In this document: in pieces, positions 3,299 to 24,661 of the stretch
Numbering within the stretch: the stretch's first letter is position 1
Layout: each line of letters begins with the position of its first letter
Assembly (NCBI RefSeq): GCF_004745575.1
Contig: NZ_RPEM01000016.1
Location: 1-34,236, forward strand
DNA from: Pseudotabrizicola sediminis
GTDB lineage: Bacteria; Pseudomonadota; Alphaproteobacteria; Rhodobacterales; Rhodobacteraceae
Length of the DNA stretch: 34,236 bases
Direction: 5' to 3'
The notes under the pieces: model-generated
The model's input: only the letters and a program-made list of their open reading frames with translations
The model's database searches: none
Told to the model about the DNA's origin: nothing
Position numbers and translations under genes: made by a program

Positions 3299-4903
<1,605 letters not shown>

Positions 4904-4965: not shown

Positions 4966-5139
4966 ATGGCAATGAACCAGAAATTGAAGAATCTAATAGA
5001 GAGAGTGTTGATCGCCCGACCGGCTGCCACCGCCCAGGACATACGCAATCTCGTGCCAGCGCTGCGTGAAAAGAGCGACAGCGAGATCGAGAAACTTGTG
5101 ACGCCTTTTCGCAACCGGCGTGCAAATGGTGCGCGATGA
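4966..5139 (+). CDS. Small hypothetical protein (57 aa) coupled to the pseudouridine synthase
   Basis: The frame from ATG 4966 to TGA 5137-5139 encodes a charged 57-aa protein starting MAMNQKLKNLIERVLIARPA and ending FRNRRANGAR. I do not recognise a family. It looks helical, with basic residues at the C-terminus, compatible with nucleic-acid or protein binding. Its stop overlaps the next start in an ATGA, which argues for translation and coupling. No strong Shine-Dalgarno is visible. An overlapping ATG at 4956 opens a less protein-like frame. Confidence 0.5.
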   Translation: MAMNQKLKNLIERVLIARPAATAQDIRNLVPALREKSDSEIEKLVTPFRNRRANGAR

Positions 5140-5840
5140 TGCAGGCTCGCCGACTTGGGCCGCCGAGACGCGCCTCCCGACTTATCCTTTTCAACAAACC
5201 CTTTGGCGTTGTTTCCCAGTTCAGCGGTGATACATCGCCCGACGGACGCAAGACGCTTGGAGGCTGGATAAACTGCCCCGGTGTTTATCCCGCGGGACGT
5301 CTGGACAAGGACAGCGAGGGCCTGCTGCTTCTGACCGACAATGGGCCGCTTCAGGCTCAAATCGCCGATCCGAAGTTCAAGCTGCCCAAAACCTATCTCG
5401 TGCAGGTTGAAGGTGAGCCGGACGCGGAGGATCTCGAGGCGCTGCGCCGTGGCATTGCCCTGAAGGATGGTTTGACCCTGCCGGCAGAGGTGGAGCGCAT
5501 CTGCCCCCCCGATCTCTGGCCACGCGATCCGCCGGTTCGGTACCGGAAGAGTGTTCCAGATTGCTGGCTGCGCCTGACTCTGCGGGAGGGCCGAAATCGC
5601 AAGGTCAGGCGGATGACGGCCGCGATCCATCATCCGACGCTTCGACTTGTGCGCTGCCGTATCGGGCCCTGGACTTTAGACGGCATCAGGCCCGGTACAT
5701 GGCATGAGATCCGGCTGCGCGATGCGCGTGCCGCACTGGCACCGCCAACGACGATTGAGCTCTTGAGCGGCAAGGCCGATAAGAGGGCATCCCGAGAAAC
5801 TCAGCTGAAAGGTGGCTGCACTGTGGAAGGGCGGCAATAA
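5136..5840 (+). CDS. RluE/RsuA-family rRNA pseudouridine synthase
   Basis: This 234-aa enzyme isomerises a uridine to pseudouridine in RNA, most likely 23S rRNA by analogy with RluE. The signature RLDKDSEGLLLLT spans residues 55-67, with Asp57 as the catalytic aspartate. Other family blocks are LILFNKPFGVVSQF near the N-terminus, KTYLVQVEG, and LREGRNRKVRRMTAAIHHPT with the conserved RNRKVRRM motif. There is no N-terminal S4 domain, as in RluE. The start overlaps the 57-aa ORF by four bases, and the next gene begins one base after its stop, so it sits inside a tight operon. The C-terminal ~35 residues are an extension of unknown role. Confidence 0.88.
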   Translation: MMQARRLGPPRRASRLILFNKPFGVVSQFSGDTSPDGRKTLGGWINCPGVYPAGRLDKDSEGLLLLTDNGPLQAQIADPKFKLPKTYLVQVEGEPDAEDLEALRRGIALKDGLTLPAEVERICPPDLWPRDPPVRYRKSVPDCWLRLTLREGRNRKVRRMTAAIHHPTLRLVRCRIGPWTLDGIRPGTWHEIRLRDARAALAPPTTIELLSGKADKRASRETQLKGGCTVEGRQ

Positions 5841-5841
5841 C

Positions 5842-6562
5842 ATGAGCGCATTGTTTGAAGAACTCGACTATTGCCCGACGCCAATCGGCGCGCTCAGTTT
5901 GCGCCGCCGTCGGGATCTGCGCCTTGGTGAGGATGTCTGGGAGATCATGCTTGGCGAGAAATTCCTGATGACCAGCCACTTCACGGTTTCAGAAGTGGCA
6001 CTTGGCCAGCTGGGTGTCAGGGCTTGCAGGGGCGAGGGCCTTGACGTGGTGGTGGGGGGGGCTCGGTCTTGGCTACACGGCAGAAGCCGTTCTTGCCGAA
6101 GGTTCGGTCGCTGACCTCATTGTGGTCGAATACCTTGCCCCCGTCATCGAATGGCACGAAACCGGGATTCTGCCCATGGGAACCCGGCTGCCGAGTGATC
6201 CGCGCTGTCGATTGGTGGCGGGAGATTTTTTCGCGATGGCTCAGGGTGAAGGGTTCGACCCTGAAAGGCCCGCGAGGCAGTTCGACGCGATTCTCGCCGA
6301 TATCGACCACGCCCCCGACCATCTGCTCGACGCGCGAAGCGACAGATTCTATCAGGTCGAGGGCCTGCGATCCCTGAAGCGTCACCTGAAACCCGGAGGC
6401 ATCTTCGGCCTCTGGTCGAATGAAGTCACGGACCAGCGGTTCCTCGACAGGCTGGGCGCGGCGTTCCCCCAAGCTTGGGCGGAACCTGTCACCTTTGACA
6501 ACCCTCTGACCGGACGGCCGTTTACGCAGACGGTCTATCTGGCGCGAACTGAGGTGGCATGA
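5842..6562 (+). pseudogene. Spermidine-synthase-like methyltransferase-fold protein, frameshifted in a G8 run
   Basis: Two frames make one protein. The first begins MSALFEELDYCPTPIGALSL and runs to DVVVGG. The second continues GLGLGYTAEAVLAEGSVADL through GDFFAMAQ, DAILADIDHAPDHLL and FDNPLTGRPFTQTVYLART. They join if one G is removed from the eight-G run at 6054-6061, restoring GGLGLGYTAEA, the nucleotide-binding glycine motif of the spermidine-synthase-like fold. The restored protein is about 239 aa. The substrate is unknown; relatives may transfer aminopropyl or methyl groups. The ATGA overlap with the next gene survives. The shift could be a true mutation, a phase-variable tract, programmed slippage or a sequencing error. 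Confidence 0.75.
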
Positions 6563-7248
6563 GCCCGATAAACTCGCAGACCCAGCGTACACCCGAAGTT
6601 CTCGGCCTTTCCTGCCCGGTCTGTGCGGCATCGGCGGAACCGTTCCTGTCTGTTGACGGGCATGACTACTTTCGCTGCCTGACATGTCGGACTCGGTTTC
6701 TTGATCCCGCGCAGCACCCCGCGCGCGACGCGGAATACGCGCACTACCTCCATCATGAAAACGACCCCGACGACCCATGCTATCGCCGCTTCCTGTCCAA
6801 GCTCGCGGAGCCGCTGCTGGCACGCCTTGAAGCTGCCTCGCGCGGGCTTGATTACGGCTGCGGTCCCGGCCCCGCTCTAGCTGTGATGCTGCGCGAGGCG
6901 GGGCACGAGGTGGCGCTTTACGATCCGTTCTTCGCGCCCGATCCGGCACCCCTGGGCGACACTTACGATTTCGTCACCTGTACCGAGGCGGCCGAGCATT
7001 TCCACCACCCGAGCCGCGAGTTTGCCCGTCTGCGCGATCTGGTCCGCCCCGGCGGTTGGCTCGCCATCATGACCTGTTTTCAGACCGAGGATGCGCATTT
7101 CGCAGCCTGGCACTACAGAAAGGACCCGACCCACGTGGTTTTCTACCGTGAAGAGACATTCCAAAATCTTGCCGACCGCTGGGGCTGGACCTGTGAAGTG
7201 CCGGTAAAGGACGTTGCCCTGATGCAACGCCCGAGGGTCTCCGCATGA
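6559..7248 (+). CDS. Class I SAM-dependent methyltransferase with N-terminal zinc ribbon
   Basis: The 229-aa protein starts with a likely zinc ribbon (Cys19, Cys22, Cys40, Cys43 in CPVC and CLTC). A class I methyltransferase core follows: GLDYGCGPGPAL as SAM motif I, EVALYDPFF, the acidic TCTEAAEHFHHP, and LRDLVRPGGWLAIMT. It probably methylates an RNA or protein; the exact substrate cannot be read from the sequence. The C-terminal half contains the ProThrHis segment KDPTHVVFY seen in many methyltransferases of this type. Both ends overlap their neighbours by ATGA, so it is translationally coupled to the spermidine-synthase-like gene and the Hen1-like gene. Confidence 0.85.
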   Translation: MSPINSQTQRTPEVLGLSCPVCAASAEPFLSVDGHDYFRCLTCRTRFLDPAQHPARDAEYAHYLHHENDPDDPCYRRFLSKLAEPLLARLEAASRGLDYGCGPGPALAVMLREAGHEVALYDPFFAPDPAPLGDTYDFVTCTEAAEHFHHPSREFARLRDLVRPGGWLAIMTCFQTEDAHFAAWHYRKDPTHVVFYREETFQNLADRWGWTCEVPVKDVALMQRPRVSA

Positions 7249-7868
7249 CCTCCTGGCACCACGAAGAGCGCCTGAAAGCGGTGCAAGAGGTCGTGCGGAA
7301 AAGCGGATCAGCCCGGGTGCTTGACCTCGGGTGCGGCGCCGGGGATTTGTTCGTGCGGCTTGCGATGGAGCCCGCCCTTGTGGAACTTGTGGGCATCGAC
7401 ATCTGCCGTGCGTCGCTTAACCGTCTGCGTGACAGATTGGTGGCAGGCAAGCCTTCGGTGCCCTGGATCGACTTGCGCAAAGCGTCGATGACTGAGCCGA
7501 CGCCTGATCTGGCCGGTTTCGATTGCGCCATCCTCATTGAAACGATCGAACACATCGAACCTGAAGAATTGTCGAAGCTGGAGTGCGCGTTGTTCCAGAC
7601 CATGCGGCCGAAAACGGTGGTGATCACGACCCCAAATTCCGAGTTCAATCCGTTGCTCGGTGTGCCGTCCTGTCGGATGCGTCATCCCGGCCACCGTTTC
7701 GAATGGGACCGGGCGCAGTTCCGTCGCTGGTGTGCAAGGGTGGCCAATGACACAGGCTACATCGCGGATATCCACAACATCGCTGGCCTGCACCCCGATC
7801 TTGGCGGCGCAAGCCAGATGGCTGTGTTCCAGATGATCCAGCCGGACACGCAGACGAATGCTGCCTGA
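7245..7868 (+). CDS. Hen1-like RNA 3'-terminal ribose 2'-O-methyltransferase (methyltransferase domain only)
   Basis: The 207-aa protein has SAM motif I (VLDLGCGAGD) and the metal-binding signature of Hen1 enzymes: Glu99, Glu102 and His103 in IETIEH, plus His150 in RHPGHRFEW. The blocks VVITTPNSEFN and HRFEWDRAQFRRW are also Hen1-typical. Hen1 enzymes methylate the 2'-OH of the 3' end of RNA, in bacteria usually together with the Pnkp repair ligase. Known bacterial Hen1 proteins carry an extra N-terminal domain. Here only the methyltransferase is present and no Pnkp lies nearby, so the RNA target is open. It overlaps the upstream gene by ATGA, and helD follows after seven bases. Confidence 0.8.
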   Translation: MTSWHHEERLKAVQEVVRKSGSARVLDLGCGAGDLFVRLAMEPALVELVGIDICRASLNRLRDRLVAGKPSVPWIDLRKASMTEPTPDLAGFDCAILIETIEHIEPEELSKLECALFQTMRPKTVVITTPNSEFNPLLGVPSCRMRHPGHRFEWDRAQFRRWCARVANDTGYIADIHNIAGLHPDLGGASQMAVFQMIQPDTQTNAA

Positions 7869-7875
7869 GGGAAAC

Positions 7876-9972
7876 ATGACCGGACAAAAACCTTTGAAAA
7901 TGAGCACAGAGAAAGACCTTGAGTCCGAACGGCTGATGCAGTGCCTTGCGCGGATCGACTCGAACCTCGGCGCAATCGGCGTCCGGCTGACGGATTATCA
8001 GCGCGACATTCAGGCCGCCCACGATCATATGTGGGAAGCTCGGCGCGACATGGACCATATCGACAAGATCGGCATGCGGCAGTCGATCGACCAGATGATG
8101 CGGTCGTCGGATGTGCTGCGCGCGCAGGCCAAAAAGCTCGAAAAGCTGCGCAAGTCGCCTTATTTCGGGCGTTTCGATTTCCGTCGCACCGACCGCAACG
8201 AGACGGCGGCGCATTACATCGGCATCCACGATTTCCGCGATGATGAAACCCAGGAGCCGTGGGTTTATGATTGGCGCGCGCCGGTGTCGTCCTTGTTCTA
8301 CGACTTCGAGACCGGACCTGCGCAATATGTGGCCCCCTCGGGCACGATCCCTGGCGATCTGCTGCTTAAGCGGCAGTTCCGCATTCGAGACGGCGCGATG
8401 GACTTCATGCTGGATGTCAGCGTGAACATCGTCGATGACGTGCTGCAGGATGCCTTGGCGCAGGCCAGCGACGACGGCATGAAGAACATTGTCGCCACCA
8501 TCCAGCGTGACCAGAACGCCATCATCCGCGACGCCGATGCCCACACGCTGATCATCCAGGGCGTCGCAGGATCGGGCAAGACCTCGATCGCGCTGCATCG
8601 CATCGCGTTCCTGCTTTATCGCTTCAAGGACACGCTCACTTCCTCCGACATCCTGATCATCTCGCCCAACCGGGTGTTTGCCGACTACATCGGCAACGTT
8701 CTACCCGAACTGGGTGAGGAAACCGTGCCAGAGATCGGGATGGAGACGCTGGCCAAGCAACTTCTGGGCAGCGGCATCCGGTTTCAGACCTTCTTCGAAC
8801 AGACGGCGCTTCTGCTTGAGACAGATGACGAGGCCATGAAGGCGCGGATAAGGGCCAAGGCCACACAGGATTTCCTGCGCCAGATCGAGTCTTATGCGCA
8901 GCATCTTGAAAAGACCGCCTTCGTCGCCAATGATCTGACGGTCCGCAGGCGCCCCTTGCCCGGTTTCGTGTTCGATACGACATGGAACCGGCTGAAGCAT
9001 CTGGATACCGCTGAACGCATCGTTGCCACAGGCAACGCGATGATCGAGCAGTTTCAGCAGCAATACGAGATTGAGTTGCGCAAGGAGGAACGCGCCGTCG
9101 TCCGCAGCGCCGTCCGCGGCATGGTGAACCGCCCGACCTTGCGCGCGGCCTACAAGGGGCTGCTCGATTGGATCGACCGACCAGATCTGTTCAAGCCGAC
9201 CGGGGGAAAATTTGAATACGCCGATGTCTTCCCGCTGATCTACCTGCAGATGCTGACCGAGGGGGTGGAAAACCCCTACGCAGGTGTCAAACACCTGCTG
9301 GTTGACGAGATGCAGGATTACACGCCAGCGCATTACGCGGTGCTGGCGCGGCTGTTTCCCTGCCGCAAGACGGTCCTCGGCGACGCCACCCAGTCGGTGA
9401 ATCCCTACAGCGCATCGACGGCAGAGCAGATCGAAAGCGTGCTGGAAGGCGCGTGGCGGGTAACGCTGAACAAGAGCTACCGGTCAACCTGGGAGATCAT
9501 GGAGTTTGCGCTGAAGATCTCGCCCAACCCCGATCTGGTCGCAATGGAACGTCATGGGCCAGTGCCGGATGTGCGGGTCGTGAAAACTCCGCAGCAGGCG
9601 TTGGCCCGGATCGCCGCTGCGGTGGAGGAGTTTCACGACTCCGACCACACCAGTCTTGCGGTGCTGGCCAAGACGCAAGCTCAGGCCAAACGGCTGCACA
9701 AACATCTCGCCGAGGCTGGCGTTCAGGCCCGGCTGCTGGAAGAGGGAAGTTCCGGTTTTTCCACCGGCGTCATTGTCTGCACGCCCCATCTCGCCAAAGG
9801 ACTGGAGTTCGACCGCGTCATGATCCCCGATGTCAGTGCGGCGGTCTATGCCACCGAAATGGACCGGAACCTGCTCTACGTTGCCTGCACTCGGGCGATG
9901 CACCGGCTCAGCCTGATCTCGGTGGGGGCACCGTCTGACTTCCTCGATGTGAAGCAACACGTCAATGCCTGA
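7876..9972 (+). CDS. helD: HelD-like UvrD-type ATPase (RNA polymerase recycling factor)
   Basis: The ~698-aa protein belongs to the UvrD/Rep-like superfamily 1 group that includes HelD, which binds stalled RNA polymerase and uses ATP to release nucleic acid. The first ~100 residues are charged and probably form the coiled-coil arm. EPWVYDWRAPVSSLFYDFE is a HelD-typical block. Helicase motifs are Walker A GVAGSGKTS (residues 229-237), VDEMQDYTPAHY, GDATQSVNPY, LNKSYRSTWEI, KGLEFDRVMIPD and YVACTRAMHRL. I chose ATG 7876 because GAGGG lies seven bases upstream; an ATG at 7858 is possible. It is the last gene of the operon starting at 4966. Confidence 0.88.
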   Translation: MTGQKPLKMSTEKDLESERLMQCLARIDSNLGAIGVRLTDYQRDIQAAHDHMWEARRDMDHIDKIGMRQSIDQMMRSSDVLRAQAKKLEKLRKSPYFGRFDFRRTDRNETAAHYIGIHDFRDDETQEPWVYDWRAPVSSLFYDFETGPAQYVAPSGTIPGDLLLKRQFRIRDGAMDFMLDVSVNIVDDVLQDALAQASDDGMKNIVATIQRDQNAIIRDADAHTLIIQGVAGSGKTSIALHRIAFLLYRFKDTLTSSDILIISPNRVFADYIGNVLPELGEETVPEIGMETLAKQLLGSGIRFQTFFEQTALLLETDDEAMKARIRAKATQDFLRQIESYAQHLEKTAFVANDLTVRRRPLPGFVFDTTWNRLKHLDTAERIVATGNAMIEQFQQQYEIELRKEERAVVRSAVRGMVNRPTLRAAYKGLLDWIDRPDLFKPTGGKFEYADVFPLIYLQMLTEGVENPYAGVKHLLVDEMQDYTPAHYAVLARLFPCRKTVLGDATQSVNPYSASTAEQIESVLEGAWRVTLNKSYRSTWEIMEFALKISPNPDLVAMERHGPVPDVRVVKTPQQALARIAAAVEEFHDSDHTSLAVLAKTQAQAKRLHKHLAEAGVQARLLEEGSSGFSTGVIVCTPHLAKGLEFDRVMIPDVSAAVYATEMDRNLLYVACTRAMHRLSLISVGAPSDFLDVKQHVNA

Positions 9973-10209: not shown

Positions 10210-10458
10210 GTGAGCTTAAAAGTAAGAATTCAGGAGAGAGACGTAGAAATCGTCGGAAAAGGTACGATCGATGGCGACGTCCCATTCTATTTCAAGGATC
10301 AGGGACACCGGTGGATGGTCCGGATTGGAAAAAACTGGACGATCAAGCAATTTGAACTGGTGGGCGATTCCGTTCCATCAATTTCCGCCGCGCGAAACAA
10401 GATGTACTGGGCAATTGCACAATTCCGGAACCAATCCCGAGATCGGGCCATCAATTGA
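10210..10458 (+). CDS. Hypothetical protein (82 aa), first gene of the small-gene cassette
   Basis: This frame starts with GTG at 10210 after a weak AGGGA and encodes 82 residues beginning MSLKVRIQERDVEIVGKGTI. The sequence alternates short beta-like stretches (VEIVGKGTI, RWMVRIGKNW) with a helical C-terminus (AARNKMYWAIAQFRNQ). No known family is recognised, and there is no signal peptide or membrane segment. It is followed 56 bases later by the first of two paralogous 74-aa genes, so it probably belongs to the same accessory cassette. Confidence 0.5.
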   Translation: MSLKVRIQERDVEIVGKGTIDGDVPFYFKDQGHRWMVRIGKNWTIKQFELVGDSVPSISAARNKMYWAIAQFRNQSRDRAIN

Positions 10459-10514
10459 GATGATACGATAGCCTGTTGTTTACGAAACGAAATCTGGTCG
10501 AAGAGGATAGAAAA

Positions 10515-10739
10515 ATGCTTCATAAAATCGCCCTGATGGAAAGCATCAGCCGCAAGACCGCGGATCAACTGCATCAGTACCTGATGGATTTCGCTGAAAA
10601 TACCCACCGTATGTTTTGGGTGGACAACCGCGCTTACGTCGAAGTCCACGCGACCAGGGATGCAGACCTGATCCGCCGCCAATTTCCGAACTTGGTCGCT
10701 GGAAACCCACGTTATACGTCATCCAATTTTCCGTGGTAA
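10515..10739 (+). CDS. Small conserved paralogue A (74 aa), unknown function
   Basis: The 74-aa protein starts at ATG 10515, preceded by GAGGA; a longer frame opens at 10476. It begins MLHKIALMESISRKTADQLH and continues with FAENTHRMFWVDNRAYVEV. It is clearly related to the protein at 11802-12026: both share M-x-x-K-I-x-L-x-x-x-x-SRKT, H-x-YL-x-DF, HR-x-FW and N-x-RAY, then a DLxRxQFP block near the end. The conserved length and spacing argue that both copies are real genes. Function is unknown. A small soluble partner, for example an antitoxin-like or adaptor protein for the neighbouring RES-domain protein, is conceivable but unproven. Confidence 0.65.
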   Translation: MLHKIALMESISRKTADQLHQYLMDFAENTHRMFWVDNRAYVEVHATRDADLIRRQFPNLVAGNPRYTSSNFPW

Positions 10740-10804
10740 GACCGGAATACGCACTTTAGATTTGTAGCCATCTGGTCCGCACAGAAGGCGGCGTCCTTTC
10801 AAAC

Positions 10805-10819
10805 CGACTTCGAAAGTCG
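10805..10819. promoter_or_regulatory. Short inverted repeat just before the RES-domain gene
   Basis: CGACTT and AAGTCG flank a three-base CGA spacer, ending six bases before the GTG start at 10825. The perfect 6-bp dyad could be an operator or a small hairpin affecting the leader. At this length chance is possible. Confidence 0.3.
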
Positions 10820-10824
10820 ATCTC

Positions 10825-11556
10825 GTGGCAGATTTTTCCGGCCCTCGTGACTTCCTGAATTTCAGATCCGAGGCTTCACAAAGGAGCCGATACCTGCGTT
10901 CAGCAAGCGGCGAGGCGTTCCTCCGGGCTGTTGCCGATACATGCAAGATACGCTTGAAGAGCATTTCGTCTGGCGCAGAGTTCTGGCGCGCACAGGTTGG
11001 ACATGACTGGACGAGCGATGCCGATGGACGAAGGATCAGCGGCCCTCATTCCGAAACCCGCATGCGCCCATGGCAGGATCGCGCGTATGAAGGCCGGGTC
11101 AATGCGAAAGGAATTCCCTGCCTCTACCTCGCCACGACACGGGAAGTTGCGATGTCGGAGGTCCGCCCTTGGATCGGGTCCATCCTTTCTGTGGCCCGCT
11201 TCAGCCTTGCCCGGGACGTTACCGTTGTGGATTGTTCTAAATACCATGGGCTGGATGCTCCCGAGGTCGGATTTTCGGACTCGGATGAAGTAAGCGAGCA
11301 GGTTTGGTCGCACATAGACTATGCTTTTTCGCGCCCCGTCACGCGCAGCGACAACACGGCCGAATACGCGGCCACCCAGATCATCGCCGAGGTGTTCCGC
11401 TCGGAAGGCTATGATGGGGTCATCTATAAAAGTGCTTTCGCCACTACGGGTTACAACATTGCCCTGTTCGATCTCAACGCCGCGCTACAGACAGAGTCCT
11501 ATCTTTTCCAGGTGAGCAAGGCGACATTCGACTTTCGCGAACTCACGCTTGATTGA
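10825..11556 (+). CDS. RES-domain protein (toxin-like, possible NAD-degrading fold)
   Basis: The 243-aa protein carries a RES domain in its middle and C-terminal parts. The characteristic residues are visible: Arg91 in EGRVNAKGIPCLYLA, Tyr101, Glu112 in SEVRPW and a serine in VIYKSAF (about residue 203). RES toxins such as those of the xre-res family degrade NAD+. This one has an additional N-terminal ~80 residues and lacks an adjacent Xre/ParS-type antitoxin. Instead it is bracketed by two copies of a 74-aa protein. The start is GTG 10825, which has only a weak ribosome-binding site. If it is a toxin, one of the small neighbours may neutralise it. Confidence 0.75.
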   Translation: MADFSGPRDFLNFRSEASQRSRYLRSASGEAFLRAVADTCKIRLKSISSGAEFWRAQVGHDWTSDADGRRISGPHSETRMRPWQDRAYEGRVNAKGIPCLYLATTREVAMSEVRPWIGSILSVARFSLARDVTVVDCSKYHGLDAPEVGFSDSDEVSEQVWSHIDYAFSRPVTRSDNTAEYAATQIIAEVFRSEGYDGVIYKSAFATTGYNIALFDLNAALQTESYLFQVSKATFDFRELTLD

Positions 11557-11801
11557 TACCGGATGCTGTCGCGTACAGGGTATGCCGCCGCACAACTTGT
11601 CCTCTTGGACCTTCATGATGTAGGCGCACTGCGGTGGCCAATCGATTCAGACTGGACTCGCGGGCCTTCATCGATTAGCGGTTTTTTGTGCGAGACTCCA
11701 ACGTGACCACGTCACCGTTGCGCTTCTCGTTCCCAGCATCATCGTTGAATGTCAGGTTCGTGGCTCGTCGAGCAGCGGTCCGGTAGAGGTCAGGGAGGGT
11801 C

Positions 11802-12026
11802 ATGTTTAGAAAAATCGTGTTGAACGAGCGGCTCAGTCGCAAAACCGTGGGGCATATTCACCGATATCTTTTCGACTTCGGTCAAGGCGCACATCGGGTT
11901 TTCTGGATTAATGAACGCGCCTATCTTGAAACCGATTGCGTTTCAGACCTCGACCTTCTCAGGGATCAGTTCCCGGCAATGATCGTCGCAGAGATCGACC
12001 AGAAATCGCACGAATCCCAAAGGTGA
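11802..12026 (+). CDS. Small conserved paralogue B (74 aa), unknown function
   Basis: The 74-aa protein starts MFRKIVLNERLSRKTVGHIH at ATG 11802, behind a good AGGGAGGG. It aligns nearly end to end with the protein at 10515-10739 (SRKT, HRYLFDF, HRVFWINERAY, DLDLLRDQFP), so the two arose by duplication and have diverged considerably. The 3' end overlaps the next gene in a GTGA arrangement, which couples them. No family is recognised. It is soluble, with no signal or membrane segment. Confidence 0.7.
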   Translation: MFRKIVLNERLSRKTVGHIHRYLFDFGQGAHRVFWINERAYLETDCVSDLDLLRDQFPAMIVAEIDQKSHESQR

Positions 12027-12673
12027 ACGGACAGAACATAGAGCGGAGGGAAGAGCAGACGGTGGGAAAGATTTCAAGGAAAGCAAATCCGCCAGAGATC
12101 GTGGAGCGGGAACACGGCCGCTATATGATCAAGGCAGGATTACTTCAGAATACGATTGTTGCACGGGCATTCCCGAAGCCACCGTCGAAATTCCGCCACC
12201 TTGTCGCGGAGGCTTTTGGCAAAACTGCCGATGACGCTATTGAGCAGCTGATCAAAACACTCGAAGCCTTGCGTTCCGAACGCCGTTCGCTGAGACGCGA
12301 CGATCCTTCTCTTCCCACTGGGGTTCCGACTTCGGATGAATATGCAGATGCATTGCGGAGCCTGTCTCCTGGTCCGAAACTGCTGCGCGCCCTTCATGAC
12401 CACGCCCTGTCACGCAGGTGGGGGTTGCGCATGGCAGACCTCGCGACGGCTGGTGAATTTGCCACCGTGCAGGATTTGCTCAGTGCATATCAGAGACTCG
12501 GGACGGATATCCTCAGGGTGGTAGAGCAAGACGAAGGTCCGGATGTCGGTCTTCAGATTGTCATGTGCGGGATCAACGGCGACGGATCTCTTCCCAATGA
12601 CATTGGCGCGCTGCAACCGGAACTGCAGGACGCTGTTTTGCGCCTCTTGGGCTCTGATCGACCATCGGTATAA
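12023..12673 (+). CDS. Hypothetical protein (216 aa) coupled to paralogue B
   Basis: I place the start at GTG 12023, whose GTGA overlaps the stop of the 74-aa paralogue B. A second GTG at 12062 follows GGAGG at longer spacing, and the open frame extends upstream to 11936. The protein is soluble and about 216 aa. The N-terminal third includes GRYMIKAGLLQNTIVARAFP. A likely helical segment follows (FGKTADDAIEQLIKTLEALR), then a linker and a helical C-terminal domain (LRMADLATAGEFATVQDLLS). I recognise no family. Its coupling makes it a partner candidate for the RES cassette. Confidence 0.6.
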   Translation: MNGQNIERREEQTVGKISRKANPPEIVEREHGRYMIKAGLLQNTIVARAFPKPPSKFRHLVAEAFGKTADDAIEQLIKTLEALRSERRSLRRDDPSLPTGVPTSDEYADALRSLSPGPKLLRALHDHALSRRWGLRMADLATAGEFATVQDLLSAYQRLGTDILRVVEQDEGPDVGLQIVMCGINGDGSLPNDIGALQPELQDAVLRLLGSDRPSV

Positions 12674-13013
12674 TTGATGGCGTTGGAAACCTTTGTCTTG
12701 AGACAAGAGGGGCAAATGACTTGCCAGCCCTTTTTGATGTTCCGGTCCGAGCCTTGGTATCATCTGCGTGGCGCCGAAGTTCTTTATCGGTCCTCGCTGT
12801 CAATGCTGAAAAAGTGCTCGCTCACATATAACCGGACGTCAGAAAACGCGTCAAGAAAACTGGTCACAGCTGCGCTTGAGCCAAGGGGTTGAGGGTGAAA
12901 TCCATCAGAAACCGAATCCAGAGTCGGCGCATGCTGCAAATCGTGTGCAAGAAACCCGTTCGTTCTGCAAAGCCATATTCGGGCTTCTTTTCACCTACGG
13001 ACAAAAGCTTAAA
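12674..13013. other. Gap before the ABC-F gene
   Basis: No convincing gene, promoter or repeat is visible. A frame opens at 12876 in phase with the ABC-F gene, but its first 46 codons do not look like that family. A 72-codon frame at 12674-12892 has no recognisable features. Confidence 0.4.
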
Positions 13014-14870
<1,857 letters not shown>

Positions 14871-16833: not shown

Positions 16834-18114
16834 ATGAACAGAACATTTTCCAATTTCGTATCCAGCCATATCACGACTGGGCATCTGATCCTGACCTTTC
16901 CGAATGGATCACAAACAATCTTTGGTGACGGAACGGGACCGACCGTTGCGGCGCGCATAAAAGACCAAAGGACATTGCGGCGTCTGACAACCAATCCTGA
17001 ACTGGCTTTTGGCGAAGCGTTCATGGATGGCACCTTCCAGATGGAGGAGGGATCGATTTATGACTTTCTCGAACTGGTTTTCCGCAATACTCGCGTCGAG
17101 GAGTTGGCCGGTATTCCGGGACTGGCCAGGAAAGCCTTCGGCATGTTCAACCGGTGGACCGGATACAACTCCATTTCAAAATCGAAATCGAACGTCGCGC
17201 ACCACTATGACCTGAATGGCGATCTCTATCGGCTGTTTCTGGACAGCGACAGTCAGTATTCCTGTGGTTATTTTGAAAACGATGGCGACAGCCTGGAGCA
17301 GGCGCAACTGGCGAAGAAACGCCACATCGCGGCCAAGATGGTCATGAAGCCAGGGCAGAGCGTCTTGGACATCGGCTCTGGCTGGGGTGGGCTCGGCCTG
17401 TATCTGGCGCGGCATTTCAATGCGAAAGTGTCAGGTGTCACGCTGTCCGAAGAACAGCACGGCATCTCGAACGCTCGTGTCAAGGCATCAGGCTTTGACA
17501 AACAGGTCGGGTTCCATTTGCGTGACTACCGCGATGTCTCGGAAAAGTTTGACCGGATCGTTTCGGTCGGCATGTTCGAGCATGTGGGGCTTTCATCCTA
17601 TGACGAATTCTTTGGCAAGGTGCGGGACCTGCTGACCGATGATGGTGTGATGCTGCTGCATTATATCGGGCAGAGCGGCCGACCTTCACATACGAACCCG
17701 TGGGTGCTGAAATACATCTTTCCGGGCGGTTACATGCCCGCCTTGTCCGAGGTGCTGCCGGTTATCGAGCGTCAGGGTCTGATCGTCACTGACTTGGAAA
17801 CCTTGCGTCTGCATTACGCCGAGACCCTGCGGCACTGGCGGCAGAACTTCCTTGCACGGCGCGACGAGGCCGTGGCGCTTTATGACGAACGATTTGCGCT
17901 GATGTGGGAGTTCTATCTTGCGGCCGCGGAAACCGCGTTCCGCCATCAGGGGTTGGTGATCCACCAGATCCAGATTGCCAAACGGCAAGAGGCCGTACCC
18001 CTGACCCGCACCTATATCGAAGAGGCAGAGGCCGAGTTGCGTGCGCAGGAGGCACCTGTGCGGGCCGTGCCACGGCAAGCGATGGCCAAACAAAAGGTGG
18101 GTGCGACCGGTTGA
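16834..18114 (+). CDS. cfa: Cyclopropane-fatty-acyl-phospholipid synthase
   Basis: The 426-aa enzyme transfers a methylene group from SAM to the double bond of unsaturated acyl chains in membrane phospholipids, a typical stationary-phase and stress adaptation. Family blocks are NVAHHYDLNGDLYRLFLD, YSCGYFE, the SAM motif VLDIGSGWGGLGLYLA, VTLSEEQ, SVGMFEHVG, YIFPGGYMPALSE and HYAETLRHWRQNF. The N-terminal ~130 residues are the usual lipid-recognition part. ATG 16834 follows GGAAG. A plsC-type gene lies 59 bases downstream, so the pair probably acts on membrane lipids together. Confidence 0.93.
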   Translation: MNRTFSNFVSSHITTGHLILTFPNGSQTIFGDGTGPTVAARIKDQRTLRRLTTNPELAFGEAFMDGTFQMEEGSIYDFLELVFRNTRVEELAGIPGLARKAFGMFNRWTGYNSISKSKSNVAHHYDLNGDLYRLFLDSDSQYSCGYFENDGDSLEQAQLAKKRHIAAKMVMKPGQSVLDIGSGWGGLGLYLARHFNAKVSGVTLSEEQHGISNARVKASGFDKQVGFHLRDYRDVSEKFDRIVSVGMFEHVGLSSYDEFFGKVRDLLTDDGVMLLHYIGQSGRPSHTNPWVLKYIFPGGYMPALSEVLPVIERQGLIVTDLETLRLHYAETLRHWRQNFLARRDEAVALYDERFALMWEFYLAAAETAFRHQGLVIHQIQIAKRQEAVPLTRTYIEEAEAELRAQEAPVRAVPRQAMAKQKVGATG

Positions 18115-18173
18115 CCCGTCGCGGGCGCGCGCAATAGACCACTGCGCAAACAGGCTCGGCAAGCTGCATCGCT

Positions 18174-18911
18174 TTGATCGTGCTAAGGTCATTCCTGTTC
18201 GACGCCGTGTTCGTGATGTGGACAGCGCTGTTTGCCTTGGGCATCCCGGTGTTGTGGGTCGCGGGCAGCCCCCGCCGCCCGATACGCGCCGTCACCCGGC
18301 TTTGGGTGCGCGGTGTTCTTGTCCTGCTGAAAGTGGTGGTCGGCCTGACCTATTCCGAACAGGGCCGCGCTGCCAAGCCGGATGGGCCGTGCCTGATCAT
18401 ATCGAACCACCAGTCTGTCTGGGAGACGCTGGCCTTTGTGGTTCTGTTTCCCGATGTCGCCATCATCGCCAAGCGCGAGTTGGTGAAGATTCCTGTGGTG
18501 TCCTGGTATCTGGCCCGGTCGCCGATGATCATCATCGACCGCGAGGCGGGGTCAGGTGCGCTGAAACAGATGCTTACCTCTGCGCAGGATGCCCTTGCCG
18601 ACGGTCGCTCTGTACTGATCTTTCCCGAAGGCACCCGCAAACTGCCCGACGCCGCCATCAGGTTTCACCGTGGCGCCGAGCTTTTGTATGCGCGTCTCAA
18701 TGTTCCTGTGCTGCCAGTCGTGATTGATTCTGGCAGATTTTGGGGCGCAGCCCAGCCATTCAAACGACCAGGATCGGTAGCCGTGTCCTACCTGTCGGCA
18801 ATCCGGCCGGGGCTGCCGCCCGCGACGTTCACAAAACAGGCAGAATCGTTGATCCAGACAGAACGGAGCAGAATCGACGCAACCCGGATAAGCTCAAAAT
18901 GTAACCCATGA
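18174..18911 (+). CDS. plsC: 1-acyl-sn-glycerol-3-phosphate acyltransferase (PlsC family)
   Basis: This protein of about 245 aa should acylate lysophosphatidic acid in the inner membrane to give phosphatidic acid. The catalytic block reads SNHQSVWET, i.e. His-x4-Glu instead of the commoner His-x4-Asp, a variant seen in several proteobacterial PlsC proteins. FPEGTRK is the conserved substrate-binding motif, and PVLPVVID is also typical. Two hydrophobic segments are present near the N-terminus. The start is uncertain: TTG 18174 or GTG 18180 with no clear ribosome-binding site. Position after cfa supports a lipid-remodelling pair. Confidence 0.85.
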   Translation: MIVLRSFLFDAVFVMWTALFALGIPVLWVAGSPRRPIRAVTRLWVRGVLVLLKVVVGLTYSEQGRAAKPDGPCLIISNHQSVWETLAFVVLFPDVAIIAKRELVKIPVVSWYLARSPMIIIDREAGSGALKQMLTSAQDALADGRSVLIFPEGTRKLPDAAIRFHRGAELLYARLNVPVLPVVIDSGRFWGAAQPFKRPGSVAVSYLSAIRPGLPPATFTKQAESLIQTERSRIDATRISSKCNP

Positions 18912-18964
18912 ACAGCCACATCTTGCGGCGAACAGGCTCAATATATGGAAAAATCAGCTTTTGC

Positions 18965-18993
18965 TTGACATTGTCTATGCTGCACCGCAGAAT
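18965..18993 (+). promoter_or_regulatory. Candidate sigma70-type promoter for the sulP-usp genes
   Basis: TTGACA (18965-18970) is a perfect -35. Seventeen bases later CAGAAT (18988-18993) fits a moderate -10. It lies 85 bases upstream of the SulP ATG, with the dyad and the 20-bp repeat in between. Confidence 0.5.
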
Positions 18994-19009
18994 TCATCGA
19001 ATAACTTAA

Positions 19010-19024
19010 ATCGACTTTGTCGAT
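19010..19024. promoter_or_regulatory. Inverted repeat ATCGAC-TTT-GTCGAT
   Basis: A perfect 6-bp dyad with a 3-base spacer lies downstream of the candidate sulP promoter. Its left half is part of AAATCGACTTT, which also occurs at 16778-16788 before cfa. It could be an operator shared by both transcription units. Confidence 0.4.
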
Positions 19025-19031
19025 GGCTATG

Positions 19032-19051
19032 CCGGGCGCTTATCCCTCGGC
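19032..19051 (+). repeat. 20-bp repeat, copy 2 (leader of sulP)
   Basis: CCGGGCGCTTATCCCTCGGC matches the copy at 16641-16660 in 19 of 20 positions. It lies 27 bases before the SulP start, inside the presumed mRNA leader, so it could act at RNA level or mark a recombination point. Confidence 0.6.
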
Positions 19052-19078
19052 CCATTTCTTGAACGGACCTCCTCATAC

Positions 19079-20563
19079 ATGGCTATTTCTGAACGCACCT
19101 GGCGCGACTGGGTGGGTAACCCGCGTGTCGAGCTATTGGCTGGCATCGTGGTTGCCCTGGCCCTTATTCCCGAGGCAATCGCCTTTTCCATCATTGCAGG
19201 CGTCGACCCCAAGGTCGGCCTCTATGCCTCTTTCTCCATCGCAGTTCTGACCGCCATCGTCGGCGGCAGACCGGGGCTCATCTCGGGCGCGACGGCCGCC
19301 ATCGCGGTGCTGATGATCTCGCTGGTCAAGGATCATGGTCTTGAATTTCTGCTCGCCGCGACAATCCTGGCGGGCCTGCTGCAAATTCTGGCTGGGGCGC
19401 TGAAACTTTCCTTCATAATGAATTTCGTGTCGCGCTCTGTGATGATCGGCTTTGTGAACGCACTGGCGATCTTGATTTTCATGTCGCAGATCCCGGAACT
19501 GACCAATGTGCCGATGATGACGTATGTCCTTGTCGCAGCTGGATTGGCGATCATTTACGGCTTCCCCTATATCACCAAGGCAATCCCGGCGCCGCTGGTG
19601 GCGATTGTTGTTCTCACCGTTGTTGTCTATTTTGCCGATTTTGATGTGCGCACGGTCGGCGACATGGGGGAACTGCCCGATACGTTCCCGATTTTTCTGC
19701 TCCCACAAATCCCGCTGACCCTGGAAACCTTCCTGATCATCCTGCCTTATTCGCTCGCGGTGGCTGCCGTCGGTCTGCTGGAAAGCCTGATGACAGCGAC
19801 GATCGTCGATGAATTGACCGACACGCCCAGCAACAAGAACCGCGAATGTATCGGCCTTGGCGTTGCCAACACCGCGACTGGGTTTATCGGTGGCATGGCG
19901 GGTTGTGCGATGATCGGCCAGTCGATCATTAACGTCAAGTCAGGTGGCCGGGCGCGACTGTCAACAGCCGCGTCGGGTGTTTTCCTTCTGGCGATGATCC
20001 TGCTGATCGGGGATGTCGTCAAGGCGGTGCCAATGGCAGCCCTTGTCGCTGTGATGATCATGGTCAGTATCGGCACGTTTTCGTGGTCGTCGATCGGCAA
20101 CCTGCGCTCGCATCCCGTCAGTTCATCCGCTGTGATGATCCTGACTGTGATCCTGGTGGTCTACACCCACAACCTCGCAATCGGCGTGATGGCCGGCGTC
20201 CTGCTTTCGGGGATCTTCTTTGCTTCGAAAATCGCCCAGATTTTCGGCGTGACGTCCGAGGCCACTCCCGACGGCAGATCGCGAACCTACATCATCAGCG
20301 GTCAGTTGTTCTATGCTTCGGTCGCGCGGTTCAACGCATCCTTTGATTTCAAAGAGTCGCTTGACGAGGTGACAATCGACGTCAGCCGCGCCCACATCTG
20401 GGACATCTCGTCTGTTGCTGCGGTTGATATGGTTGTCTTGAAATTCCGGCGCGAGGGTACGAAGGTGAATTTGGTTGGCATGAACGAAGCATCGGAAACC
20501 ATCGTCGACGAGCTGGCCATTCACGACAAACCCGGTGCAATGGACAAGTTGCAGGCTCATTGA
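19079..20563 (+). CDS. SulP-family anion transporter with C-terminal STAS domain
   Basis: The 494-aa inner-membrane protein belongs to the SulP (SLC26) group, which carries sulfate, bicarbonate or related anions. The family start is visible ([34 protein letters not shown]), as are [31 protein letters not shown] and the [20 protein letters not shown] block. About 11-14 hydrophobic helices end near residue 390. A STAS-type domain follows ([20 protein letters not shown]). BicA-like bicarbonate and sulfate transport cannot be told apart by eye. The start has no clear Shine-Dalgarno. A universal stress gene follows after 13 bases, a frequent pairing with SulP carriers. Confidence 0.9.
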
Positions 20564-20576
20564 CATGGGAGATAAC

Positions 20577-21437
20577 ATGCAAAAAATCACCGCCTTCATC
20601 GACGGGTCGTTTTATGCGGCCAGCGTCATTGACCATGCAGCATGGGCTGCCCAGAGGCTCAAAATGCCCATCTCGCTGGTGCATGTCATGGGACGCCGGA
20701 ATGAGGTGTCGAGCCAGCCTGCTGATCTGAGCGGCAGCATAAAGCTGGGTGCACGCACGGAACTCCTCGACAAACTCGCCAAGCTCGACGGAGAACGGGC
20801 CGTTCTTGGCCGGGAACGCGGCCGTGCCATCCTTGACGACGGCCAAGCCCGCCTCGCCAAAGCCAACCAAGACATTGAGATTTTCACAAAGCTGCGGAAT
20901 GGCGATCTGGTCGAAGCCGTGCAGGATCTCGCGGATGAAACCCGGTTTGCAATCATTGGAAAGCGCGGAGAAGCTGCAGATTTTGCAACAAAGCACCTTG
21001 GATCAAACCTCGAACGACTGGTTCGGACATCGACGCGCCCGGTGCTGGTGGTGTCGCGCGCATTCAAGCCGATCCGCCGGTTTCTGCTGGCCTATGACGG
21101 CGGCCAAAGCTCCATCCGCGCAGTGAACCGTATGGTTGAAGGGTCGGTTCTCGATGGCCTGGAGTGTCATATTCTGAAGGTCGGACCTGCGGCCACTGAC
21201 GTCGGCAAAGACCTCGATTCCGCGTCTCAGGCCTTGCGGGATGCAGGTTATATCGTGAAAGAGCATCTGATGCAGGGCGAACCAGAGGCAGTGATCGCGA
21301 AGGCGGTGACCGACCTGGATGTCGACATGCTTGTTCTGGGCAAAAGCGGCCACTCGCGTTTTCGGCAGCTCTTTATCGGCTCCACGACACTTGAGCTCAT
21401 GCGAACCTGTCATGTCCCGGTCTTGGTTTTCCCATAA
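20577..21437 (+). CDS. Tandem-domain universal stress protein
   Basis: The protein has about 286 residues and two Usp folds. The first runs from MQKITAFIDGSFYAASVIDH to about residue 160. The second starts at RRFLLAYDGGQSSIRAVNRM and ends GSTTLELMRTCHVPVLVFP. The second domain contains VLGKSGHSRFRQLFIGSTT, close to the ATP-binding G-2x-G-9x-G-S/T signature of Usp proteins; the first is more divergent. I start at ATG 20577 because GGAGA lies just upstream, though the frame opens earlier. It is probably cotranscribed with sulP and may sense the energy state or regulate the carrier. Confidence 0.87.
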   Translation: MQKITAFIDGSFYAASVIDHAAWAAQRLKMPISLVHVMGRRNEVSSQPADLSGSIKLGARTELLDKLAKLDGERAVLGRERGRAILDDGQARLAKANQDIEIFTKLRNGDLVEAVQDLADETRFAIIGKRGEAADFATKHLGSNLERLVRTSTRPVLVVSRAFKPIRRFLLAYDGGQSSIRAVNRMVEGSVLDGLECHILKVGPAATDVGKDLDSASQALRDAGYIVKEHLMQGEPEAVIAKAVTDLDVDMLVLGKSGHSRFRQLFIGSTTLELMRTCHVPVLVFP

Positions 21438-21497
21438 CGCATCAACGCTTTTGCCTGCCTTTTGGCACGAGCGATCACACTAGGATAGGAAACGTCG

Positions 21498-22505
21498 ATG
21501 CCGCGCAAAAGCCTGACCCAGTTCCTTGTCGAGCAGCAACGCGAGCAGTGTGCTCTTCCAGCGCAGTTACGGCTTCTTTTGGAAGTCGTGGCGCGCGCGT
21601 GCAAGCGCATCGGCTACACCGTCAACCAGGCTGGGACGGACGGCCTTTTGGGCGACGCCGGCGCAATCAATGTGCAGGGCGAAGCGCAGAAGCGGCTGGA
21701 CGTGATGGCCAACGAAATCCTGCTCGAGGCCAATGAGTGGGGCGGCCATCTGGCCGCAATGGCGTCCGAGGAGATGGACACCATCCACCCGGTTCCCAAC
21801 CGCTATCCGATGGGCGAATATCTGATGATGTTCGACCCGATCGACGGATCGAGCAACGTGGACGTGGCACTTTCGGTCGGCACCATCTTTTCCGTGATCG
21901 AGGCACCTGAAGGAATTTCGGGCCGAAACCCGACCGAAGCCGATTTCCTGCTACCCGGACGCAGGCAGGTCGCGGCGGGTTATGCCCTTTACGGACCGCA
22001 GACCCTTCTGGTGCTGTCAGTCGGCACCGGCGTCTATGAGTTCTCGCTCGATCGCGCAATGGGTTCCTGGGAGTTGACGGGAGAAAAGCTGCGCATTCCG
22101 CCCGGCTCCCGCGAGTTTGCGATCAACATGTCGAACCGCCGCCATTGGTCCGAACCGGTACGCGAATACATCGATGATTGCTTGGCTGGGAAGGATGGGC
22201 CACTCGGGCACGACTACGGAATGCGCTGGACGGGTTCTATGGTGGCCGACATTCACCGCATCCTTAAACGCGGCGGTGTGTTCATGTACCCTTGGGACAA
22301 CCGCAATCCAGACGCCGCTGGCAAGTTGCGCTTGTTGTACGAGGCGAACCCAATGGGGTTTCTGATCGAGCAGGCAGGCGGGCTGGCATTCGAAGAAGAT
22401 CATCCGATCCTGGAAATCCAACCGCGCGCACTGCACCAGAGGGTGGGTGTCACCATGGGCGACAGGGCCGAAGTCGAGCGCATCCTCGGTTACTTTTCTG
22501 CATAA
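21498..22505 (+). CDS. fbp: Fructose-1,6-bisphosphatase, class I
   Basis: The 335-aa cytosolic enzyme hydrolyses fructose-1,6-bisphosphate to fructose-6-phosphate for gluconeogenesis or the Calvin cycle. Class I marks are the metal-binding glutamates in ASEEMDT (residues 89-95), [21 protein letters not shown] with the catalytic Asp cluster near 113-116, the active-site [20 protein letters not shown] region, and GFLIEQAGG. The length is standard for the family. It begins 60 bases after the universal stress gene, in the same direction. No Calvin-cycle genes are next to it in the window, so gluconeogenesis is the simpler reading. Confidence 0.93.
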
Positions 22506-22807
22506 GGCAGGAGGCCGCCGAATTTAAAAGCGGCGAATACCCCGGAGACCGCGCGATTTACTTTAGCTGCTGGTGTGGGGGAGGCGCTCAGGTTTTCAGC
22601 GCCCAAGACTGTTTCGTCTTCTCCGCGATCCGAAGAATCAGCGCGCATTCCATCACGCCGGGCTGCGGACAATCCGCCAAGTGACGGCGGGCTGTAGCTT
22701 TTCCAACGATAGTGCCCTATTCCCCACGCACCGTGTCCGCGAACGTCACTTTGGCTGGGTCTCGATGCGTGGCGCAGGTGCAAATTGACGTGACGGAGAA
22801 GGACGCA
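22506..22807. other. Intergenic region between fbp and the Nudix gene
   Basis: No gene is visible in these 302 bases. A small hairpin, GGCGCT (22583-22588) and AGCGCC (22598-22603), could end fbp transcription, although no T tract follows. The Nudix frame is open further upstream to 22712, but that extension does not look conserved. Confidence 0.35.
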
Positions 22808-23335
22808 ATGAGATTGATCACGAAGCTCGTCCATCCGGACGTGAAGGCCACGACGGGTGCGATCCTGACCCGCCGGGCGGCGCGCGGCATCGTGTTGCGC
22901 GAGACGTTGATCCTGCTGCTGTTCACAGAACGCTACAACGATTTCAGTTTTCCGGGCGGCGGCGTGGCCGAGGGGGAAGACTTGATGGACGGGCTGCGCC
23001 GTGAACTCGAGGAAGAAACCGGCGCCAGCAATGTCCGCGTGCAGCGCAACTATGGCTATATCGAGGAACTGCGACCGCATTGGCAGCCCGGCTTTGCGCT
23101 GATGAACATGACATCGCATTTCTATTTTTGCGACATCGACCCGGAATTGCGCGCCACGAAGATGGAAGATTATGAGAAGGCCAACGGGATGCGGCCGGTC
23201 TGGGTCGATCTTGAAGAGGCCATCGCCCATAATCGGGGCGTCATGCAGCGCCGTGAAGCCTCTATGGGTATGTCGATCCAGCGCGAAACCTTCATGCTGG
23301 AAGAAATCGTGAACGACCTGACGAAGGCGGCATAA
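22808..23335 (+). CDS. Nudix hydrolase
   Basis: The 175-aa protein contains a complete Nudix box, G-x5-E-x7-R-E-x2-E-E-x-G, read in GGVAEGEDLMDGLRRELEEE followed by TGA. Nudix enzymes hydrolyse nucleoside diphosphates linked to other groups, often as housekeeping or stress sanitising enzymes; the substrate here is unknown. ATG 22808 follows GGAGAAGG. TERYNDFSFPGG just before the box and the WVDLEEAI segment after it fit the family. It is convergent with the kinase-like gene on the minus strand, with a hairpin between the two. Confidence 0.88.
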   Translation: MRLITKLVHPDVKATTGAILTRRAARGIVLRETLILLLFTERYNDFSFPGGGVAEGEDLMDGLRRELEEETGASNVRVQRNYGYIEELRPHWQPGFALMNMTSHFYFCDIDPELRATKMEDYEKANGMRPVWVDLEEAIAHNRGVMQRREASMGMSIQRETFMLEEIVNDLTKAA

Positions 23336-23340
23336 ACAAG

Positions 23341-23367
23341 CCTTGCACCACGATGTGCAGTGCAAGG
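23341..23367. terminator. Hairpin between convergent Nudix and kinase genes
   Basis: CCTTGCAC (23341-23348) and GTGCAAGG (23360-23367) form a perfect 8-bp stem with an 11-base loop, in the 41-bp gap between two convergent stop codons. Its location suits a bidirectional terminator. There is no clear T tract on either strand. Confidence 0.55.
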
Positions 23368-23376
23368 TGATCTGCG

Positions 23377-24420: not shown

Positions 24421-24661
24421 TGGATACCTTTTCTGTTCATAGCGCCCGTATGCGGACCAAATGCTCGGACATTTCAGCCTGTCAGATTTCTGGCCTTGCG
24501 GTCGCTGTGCGTAGCGATTGGGCCAGGGTGCAGCAGTTGCGGACGATCTGTCCGTAGGCTGCGCAAGTCTATGGCACAGGATCAGCGACATTTGCAAATC
24601 TTAGGGAAAAAAGGGTACCGCCGCCTTCACTCCTTTGGCGGCGTCGGTAGAATTAGGCCAG

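What the first reader, a model, noticed from the sequence alone, without database searches (positions are those of the whole stretch)
4966..9972. Compact RNA-modification operon: RluE-like, spermidine-synthase-like, zinc-ribbon methyltransferase, Hen1-like and HelD
Seen: six genes in one direction with three ATGA overlaps, one 1-base gap and one 7-base gap. They combine a pseudouridine synthase, two or three SAM-fold enzymes including a Hen1-like RNA 3'-end methyltransferase, and an RNA polymerase recycling ATPase. Known: Hen1 in bacteria normally works with Pnkp in RNA repair, and HelD rescues stalled RNA polymerase. Inference: the operon could modify or protect an RNA (rRNA, tRNA or nascent transcript) and clear stalled polymerase. 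I know of no described system with this composition.
Basis: partly seen in the sequence, partly recalled or inferred. Interest (0 to 1): 0.78.

Follow-up and report, generated by a model that had tools for sequence, protein, structure and literature searches.

The report
Orphan Hen1 methyltransferase cassette with HelD
A small, patchily spread bacterial gene set pairs a lone RNA-end methylating enzyme, cut free of its usual RNA-repair partner, with two more enzymes of the same broad fold and sometimes a factor that frees stuck RNA polymerase, and it may be a mobile kit for protecting RNA under stress.

Summary
The six genes, overlaps and gaps are as described, except that the spermidine-synthase-like gene is split by a frameshift at an 8-G run (seven relatives are in frame there). 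The Hen1-like protein is only the methyltransferase half of bacterial Hen1: four metal ligands kept, ligase-activating half absent, no Pnkp nearby, its own clade.

In 390 genomes of the order presence is nested: spermidine-synthase-like (7) within zinc-ribbon methyltransferase (14) within short Hen1 (20), including unlinked cases. HelD was found in 3 of 211 of these genomes, each beside short Hen1, and in 0 of 169 other genomes of the class. RluE is not a core member; here it is the genome's only RluE, relocated. Against a strict unit: in the class sample 3 of 4 other zinc-ribbon genomes lack short Hen1. Cassette genes recur singly on plasmids near SulP/Usp, CFA, NMP kinase, NUDIX or RF3; a Clostridia plasmid pairs HelD with the zinc-ribbon enzyme.

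Best reading: a mobile damage-control module with RNA 3'-end 2'-O-methylation uncoupled from ligation. Substrates are unproven.

The parts
3299..4903 (+). second groEL (ORF list starts at TTG 3128; ATG 3299 likelier); possible head of the transcript
   Evidence: ORF and codon-score gene; groEL-small ORF order conserved in L011/L075 and L077
4966..5139 (+). 57-aa conserved protein of unknown function
   Evidence: 68-75% identical homologue between groEL and the cassette in L011/L075 and L077; no family match
5136..5840 (+). RluE-type 23S pseudouridine synthase; the only RluE-class copy found in this genome
5842..6562 (+). spermidine-synthase-fold protein (Spd), frameshifted at an 8-G run near 6054-6061
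   Evidence: intact relatives; fold of an intact relative
6559..7248 (+). zinc-ribbon class I methyltransferase (ZnMT)
7245..7868 (+). short (orphan) Hen1: methyltransferase domain only
7876..9972 (+). class I HelD, RNA polymerase recycling motor
10210..12673 (+). flanking cargo that recurs in some cassette loci: 82-aa and 87-aa unknowns, RES-domain protein 10825-11556, unknown 11936-12673
12945..14870 (+). ABC-F type ATPase (ORF list starts at 12876)
16834..24597 (.). island companions: CFA synthase 16834-18114 (+), acyltransferase 18174-18911 (+), SulP 19079-20563 (+), Usp 20535-21437 (+), FBPase 21498-22505 (+), NUDIX-like 22808-23320 (+), NMP kinase 23377-24597 (-)

Best explanation
This is a horizontally spread, modular damage-control cassette for the gene-expression machinery, riding in a larger stress-tolerance island. 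Its core is an orphan Hen1, a metal-dependent methyltransferase domain that 2'-O-methylates the 3'-terminal ribose of RNA. It has lost, or never had, the domain that activates the Pnkp ligase, so it would cap RNA 3' ends rather than serve religation. ZnMT is its usual partner. Spd, and in a few genomes class I HelD, are added in a nested way. HelD would remove stalled RNA polymerase while the SAM-fold enzymes modify the 3' ends or other positions of damaged, trimmed or released RNAs, protecting them from further cleavage or exonucleases. Shown here: gene content, domain loss, conserved catalytic residues, nested co-occurrence within the order, linkage, island setting. Inferred: activity, RNA as the substrate of ZnMT and Spd, and the common stress role.
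For: Domain: matches only 267-461/462 of TIGR04074; E99, E102, H103, H150 align with the HENMT1/HEN1 metal ligands and are invariant in the 11 short Hen1s aligned. Clade: the 36 full-length rows are split from the 29 short rows by a 100/99 branch. Pnkp: the cluster beside all 9 full-length Hen1s (2 of 2 members tested are TIGR04075 over cut-off) has no member at the 27 short loci and no tblastn hit there. Nested profile over 390 genomes: Hen1s 20, ZnMT 14 (all in the 20), Spd 7 (all in the 14); hypergeometric 2e-21 and 1e-11, not corrected for kinship. Co-present though unlinked: ZnMT in G215, G258, G297 and, outside the order, G410; Spd in G206. HelD in 3 of 211 order genomes, all beside Hen1s, in 0 of 169 others of the class sample, and beside Hen1s in Lutibaculum. 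HelD and a ZnMT homologue (33%) 32 bases apart on a Clostridia plasmid next to Usp. Comamonas plasmid: Hen1s within 12.6 kb of homologues of the window's SulP, Usp, CFA, NMP kinase (73%) and NUDIX (60%). Spd near SulP and Usp on 3 of 6 plasmids with a strong Spd match.
Against: In the class sample 3 of 4 other ZnMT genomes have no short Hen1, and one of these, G487, has a Spd-ZnMT pair, so the partners are not obligate. 6 of 20 short-Hen1 genomes of the order, and 2 of 6 further short-Hen1 genomes searched whole, have no ZnMT match. HelD sits near Hen1s in only 4 of 27 loci. The ZnMT model (mean pLDDT 72) is nearest to sugar C-methyltransferases. Distances of Hen1s and ZnMT agree only moderately (Mantel r 0.48, p 0.03, 20 pairs). 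SulP of this kind is on 1675 of 72,556 plasmid records, so island co-location is weak evidence; 3 of 6 Spd plasmids do not show it. Pnkp elsewhere in the short-Hen1 genomes, beyond the fetched stretches, was not searched for.
Confidence: 0.45

Rival explanations
1. Accretion without coupling: the genes are individually useful stress or housekeeping cargo collected in a mobile island; adjacency reflects shared transfer, and the only functional group, if any, is the two- or three-gene SAM set.
For: RluE is the ordinary genomic RluE relocated; ZnMT and Spd occur apart from the others in other families; SulP of this kind is on 1675 of 72,556 plasmid records; order and strand are reshuffled in Lutibaculum.
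Against: Nested presence in the order including unlinked cases in G206, G215, G258, G297; overlapping ZnMT-Hen1 junctions in several genera; HelD in alphaproteobacteria found only beside Hen1s in the genomes tested; HelD-ZnMT pair on a Clostridia plasmid.
Confidence: 0.3
2. Small-molecule pathway: Hen1s methylates the ribose 2'-OH of a free nucleotide or nucleotide-like compound, ZnMT C- or O-methylates it and Spd transfers an aminopropyl-like group, making a protective metabolite or signal.
For: ZnMT model best matches sugar C3-methyltransferases TcaB9/KijD1 (TM about 0.6); Spd model best matches spermidine synthases; NMP kinase and NUDIX genes in the same island.
Against: Hen1s is closest to RNA-acting Hen1 with all four metal ligands kept; intact Spd relatives match no Pfam or NCBIfam family over its cut-off; neighbours such as RluE, mnmA, HelD and RF3 act on RNA or gene expression. 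A tRNA methyltransferase complex (Trm9-Trm112) is also among the 50 listed ZnMT folds, at rank 50.
Confidence: 0.12
3. Antibiotic or toxin tolerance: HelD (RNA polymerase), ABC-F, RF3, RluE and the methyltransferases protect polymerase and ribosome from inhibitors or ribotoxins by target modification.
For: The HelD review (PMC8655204, passages read) ties some HelD isoforms to antibiotic resistance; ABC-F type ATPase in the window; RF3 near cassette members on plasmids.
Against: No match over cut-off to a resistance methyltransferase among these proteins (an Rmt-family hit for Hen1s at E 0.008 is far below its cut-off); ABC-F subtype not resolved; the far part of the window holds metal-resistance genes.
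Confidence: 0.08
4. Canonical RNA repair in pieces: a Pnkp or Rnl ligase lies elsewhere in the genome and this Hen1 joins it, as in the Pnkp1-Rnl-Hen1 system whose hen1 is distant from the ligase operon.
For: PMC4411300 (passages read) describes hen1 lying far from the Pnkp1-Rnl operon; the short-Hen1 genomes were not searched for these ligases.
Against: In the described complexes the Hen1 N-terminal domain activates the ligase, and it is absent here; no genome in the 390 has both a short and a full-length Hen1 match at E 1e-20.
Confidence: 0.05

Closest known systems
[quoted passage not shown] PDB 3jwj, 3jwg)
   Same: methyltransferase domain over nearly its whole length, SAM motif and all four metal ligands
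   Different: no N-terminal ligase-activating half, no Pnkp near it, separate clade, different partners
Pnkp1-Rnl-Hen1 complex (PMC4411300)
   Same: hen1 gene apart from the kinase/ligase genes
   Different: that Hen1 still carries the ligase-activating domain (read in passages); the short Hen1 does not
Class I HelD (B. subtilis type, NF041464; PDB 6wvk)
   Same: over the NCBIfam cut-off; aligns over both main parts
   Different: 698 aa against 774, with a shorter unaligned middle (query 358-441 against chain 366-511); host is an alphaproteobacterium, a class whose name does not occur in the main text of the 2021 HelD survey
Spermidine synthase / polyamine aminopropyltransferase
   Same: predicted fold
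   Different: no family match over cut-off in the scans made; 11-20% identity to the 50 listed structures; activity unknown
Sugar C3'-methyltransferases TcaB9/KijD1 (zinc-binding N-terminus, recalled)
   Same: closest folds to the ZnMT model
   Different: TM about 0.6 of the query and 13-17% identity only; no sugar biosynthesis genes seen in the cassette

Membership tests
Bacterial Hen1 (TIGR04074 equivalog) | methyltransferase domain with E-x-x-E-H and distal H metal ligands | tested here: met
   ligand identities from PMC10781085 (passages)
Bacterial Hen1 (TIGR04074 equivalog) | N-terminal ligase-activating domain and score over cut-off | tested here: not met
   179.9 bits against 340; profile 267-461 of 462 only; a full-length relative from the same family scores 584.4
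Bacterial Hen1 (TIGR04074 equivalog) | Pnkp in the same operon | tested here: not met
   no Pnkp at 27 of 27 short loci by clustering or tblastn (flanks held 0.7-14 kb upstream and 1.3-19 kb downstream); present at 9 of 9 full-length loci, 2 of 2 tested being TIGR04075; rest of the genomes not searched
Bacterial Hen1 (TIGR04074 equivalog) | 2'-O-methylation of RNA 3' ends | not testable with these tools
   needs enzyme assay
Class I HelD | NF041464 score over cut-off | tested here: met
   524.2 bits against 419; 6wvk_H E 1.6e-106
Class I HelD | RNA polymerase binding and recycling | not testable with these tools
   needs binding assay with alphaproteobacterial polymerase
RluE (NF008487) | score over equivalog cut-off | tested here: inconclusive
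   best match but 206.8 against 284; the G297 homologue also scores under the cut-off, 229.9
Spermidine synthase | family sequence match over cut-off | tested here: not met
   pieces of the window's gene: none; intact relatives: Pfam none in 2 of 3 and one DUF4159 hit under cut-off, NCBIfam none in 2 of 2; weak phmmer hits to aminopropyltransferases at E about 0.02
Spermidine synthase | fold | tested here: met
   Foldseek E 8e-13, query TM 0.55-0.69 in the 50 rows listed, on a relative's intact protein
Known anti-phage defence system | PADLOC match of the cassette proteins to one system | tested here: not met
   single mads_2 hits to the three SAM-fold proteins and generic UvrD-helicase hits to HelD, among them a weak mads_8 hit; most mads parts not seen, so no system

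The most novel reading that the evidence does not exclude
A mobile bacterial RNA 3'-end capping pathway: an orphan Hen1 2'-O-methylates RNA 3' termini independently of ligation, as eukaryotic HEN1 does for small RNAs, ZnMT and Spd install further marks in sequence, and HelD couples this to clearing stalled RNA polymerase during stress.
Probability: 0.2. Interest if true: 0.85.

Novelty: new variant of a known kind. Interest (0 to 1): 0.6.

Why it matters
Bacterial Hen1 is known as the methylating arm of RNA ligase complexes. A clade that keeps the catalytic site but drops the ligase-activating half, beside other SAM-fold enzymes, would show 3'-end methylation used for its own sake in bacteria. 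It also gives HelD, assumed to fit Gram-negative polymerases poorly (PMC8655204, passages), a setting in alphaproteobacteria, and offers a nested set of genomes (Hen1s alone, +ZnMT, +Spd, +HelD) in which the contribution of each gene can be tested.

Tried and rejected
Rejected: defence-system membership; phage origin (2 of 50,697 phage records match, at 28-29% over about 70% of the query; no viral-contig relative); tRNA or riboswitch link (no tRNA, one sul1 motif outside the cassette); promoter and terminator scan, no better than shuffles; RluE as a core member. Two distant Spd matches (38%, G217 and G244) were dropped from the Spd count. L011 and L013 were dropped from the locus counts because they are the same loci as L075 and L078. 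L009's genome is not held and could not be searched. Literature searches touching the plasmid island, HelD (54, 97) and Hen1 (53, 100) gave nothing describing this set in their listings; no search combined all the gene names.

Limits: hypergeometric values treat genomes as independent, which they are not. Genome searches used fixed E cut-offs (1e-10 to 1e-40), so diverged copies would be missed; searches carried no positive control of their own. HelD was tested in 211 of the 390 order genomes and RluE in 30. Gene calls in unannotated loci come from a codon-score script of mine, not a standard gene finder. Structure models are from 7 and 5 sequences, mean pLDDT 72 and 78. Two plasmid regions, Indioceanicola (L108) and Embleya (L134), are unannotated; scanned with my query set they showed only ZnMT and Spd.
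Full report
What is there. The window is the first 34,236 bases of a 52,403-base contig of a 4.04-Mb draft genome; the nearest named relatives of its Hen1-like protein are Brevirhabdus and Lutimaribacter. The spermidine-synthase-like (Spd) gene is split by a +1 at a run of 8 G. In the seven related loci matched by my pattern the same place reads in frame, so a sequencing or assembly error is likely but not shown. A second groEL ends 62 bases upstream of the small ORF, and groEL-small ORF-cassette recurs in L011/L075 and L077.

The Hen1-like protein. It matches positions 267-461 of the 462-position bacterial Hen1 model and nothing of the N-terminal half. It aligns over residues 7-195 with solved Hen1 methyltransferase domains (3jwj, E 3e-34) and over 7-180 with human HENMT1. 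The four metal ligands named for HEN1/HENMT1 in PMC10781085 (passages read) fall on E99, E102, H103 and H150, invariant in the 11 short sequences aligned. In a 65-row tree a 100/99 branch splits 36 full-length rows from 29 short rows. At nine of nine full-length loci of the same family a conserved neighbour of about 851 aa starts within 2.7 kb of the Hen1 match; the two members tested are Pnkp (TIGR04075 over cut-off). At the 27 short loci no member is found by clustering or tblastn. PMC4411300 (passages read) says the N-terminal domain activates the ligase. So this is Hen1 without the ligase link, as far as the fetched stretches show.

Partners. Over the same 390 genomes of the order, short Hen1 is in 20, ZnMT in 14 and Spd in 7 (two 38% matches set aside; the window's own copy is in two pieces), each set inside the one before. 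ZnMT lies directly upstream of Hen1 in 11 of 14, in 11 genera; two congeners of the window's genome (G046, G253) have none of the three. In G215, G258 and G297 ZnMT lies on another contig, and in G206 Spd does, so co-presence is not only linkage. Spd-ZnMT-Hen1 in this order is found in the window and in 5 of the other 19 genomes. Against strict dependence: 6 of the 20 have no ZnMT match; in a sample of the class 3 of 4 other ZnMT genomes have no short Hen1, while the one other short-Hen1 genome there (G410) has ZnMT, unlinked; and G487 has a Spd-ZnMT pair without Hen1. RNA-modifying neighbours occur twice: RluE 8 bases before ZnMT in G297, and MnmA overlapping ZnMT by 4 bases in G215; the other lone ZnMT genes looked at have no such neighbour that I recognised.

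HelD and RluE. HelD was found in 3 of 211 order genomes tested and in none of the 169 genomes of the class sample other than the window's own, G001 and G002 (172 searched). All three, and Lutibaculum (L015), have it starting within 2.4 kb of the start of short Hen1. The 2021 HelD survey (PMC8655204, passages read) does not use the word alphaproteobacteria in its main text, and notes that Gram-negative polymerase inserts were assumed to hinder HelD. On a Peptoclostridium plasmid HelD and a 33%-identical ZnMT homologue are neighbours beside a Usp gene. RluE is different: 25 of 30 genomes have an RluE-class gene and only two have it here, in each as the only copy at that level.

Setting. The window continues with ABC-F, MFS, CFA, SulP, Usp, FBPase, NUDIX, NMP kinase and metal-resistance genes. 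A Comamonas plasmid carries short Hen1 (45%) with SulP (68%), Usp (36%), CFA (35%), NMP kinase (73%) and NUDIX (60%) within 12.6 kb. Spd lies near SulP and Usp on Agrobacterium, Sphingobium and Sphingopyxis plasmids, three of the six plasmid records with a strong Spd match; the other three (Microvirga, Streptomyces, Embleya) do not show it. RF3 is near a cassette member on four plasmids. SulP of this kind is on 1675 of 72,556 plasmid records, so this shows mobility more than function.

Judgement. A real, patchily inherited gene set whose defining part is an orphan Hen1. The RNA-end capping and damage-control reading is the best single explanation but rests on one enzyme's active site and on neighbours; the substrates of ZnMT and Spd are open. 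The listings of searches showed no described system with this composition; none of them combined all the gene names.

Noticed in passing
window 16613-16665 (+): sul1 RNA motif (RF03058, 46.6 bits) lies upstream of the CFA synthase gene, not of the SulP gene.
   Followed up: no
window 32362-33207 (-): 281-aa fusion of an arsenate-reductase-type domain with an ArsI/CadI-type VOC domain, next to a heavy-metal P-type ATPase 29696-32221 (-).
   Followed up: no
window 23377-24597 (-): NMP/adenylate kinase with about 190 extra N-terminal residues, 73% identical over 347 of 348 residues of a Comamonas plasmid protein.
   Followed up: partly
window 10825-11556 (+): RES-domain (toxin-type) protein with a homologue in two tblastn pieces on an Agrobacterium plasmid; no antitoxin partner identified.
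   Followed up: partly
L128 1303-8145 (Brevibacterium pAP13): HelD relative (41% to the window's) 1.3 kb downstream of an RF3 gene that follows an RNase J gene, on a mobilizable plasmid.
   Followed up: partly
L116 7694-9474 (G215): MnmA gene overlaps a ZnMT gene by 4 bases, a possible clue that ZnMT acts on tRNA.
   Followed up: partly
window 1715-2989 (+): IS481-family transposase just upstream of the second groEL.
   Followed up: no
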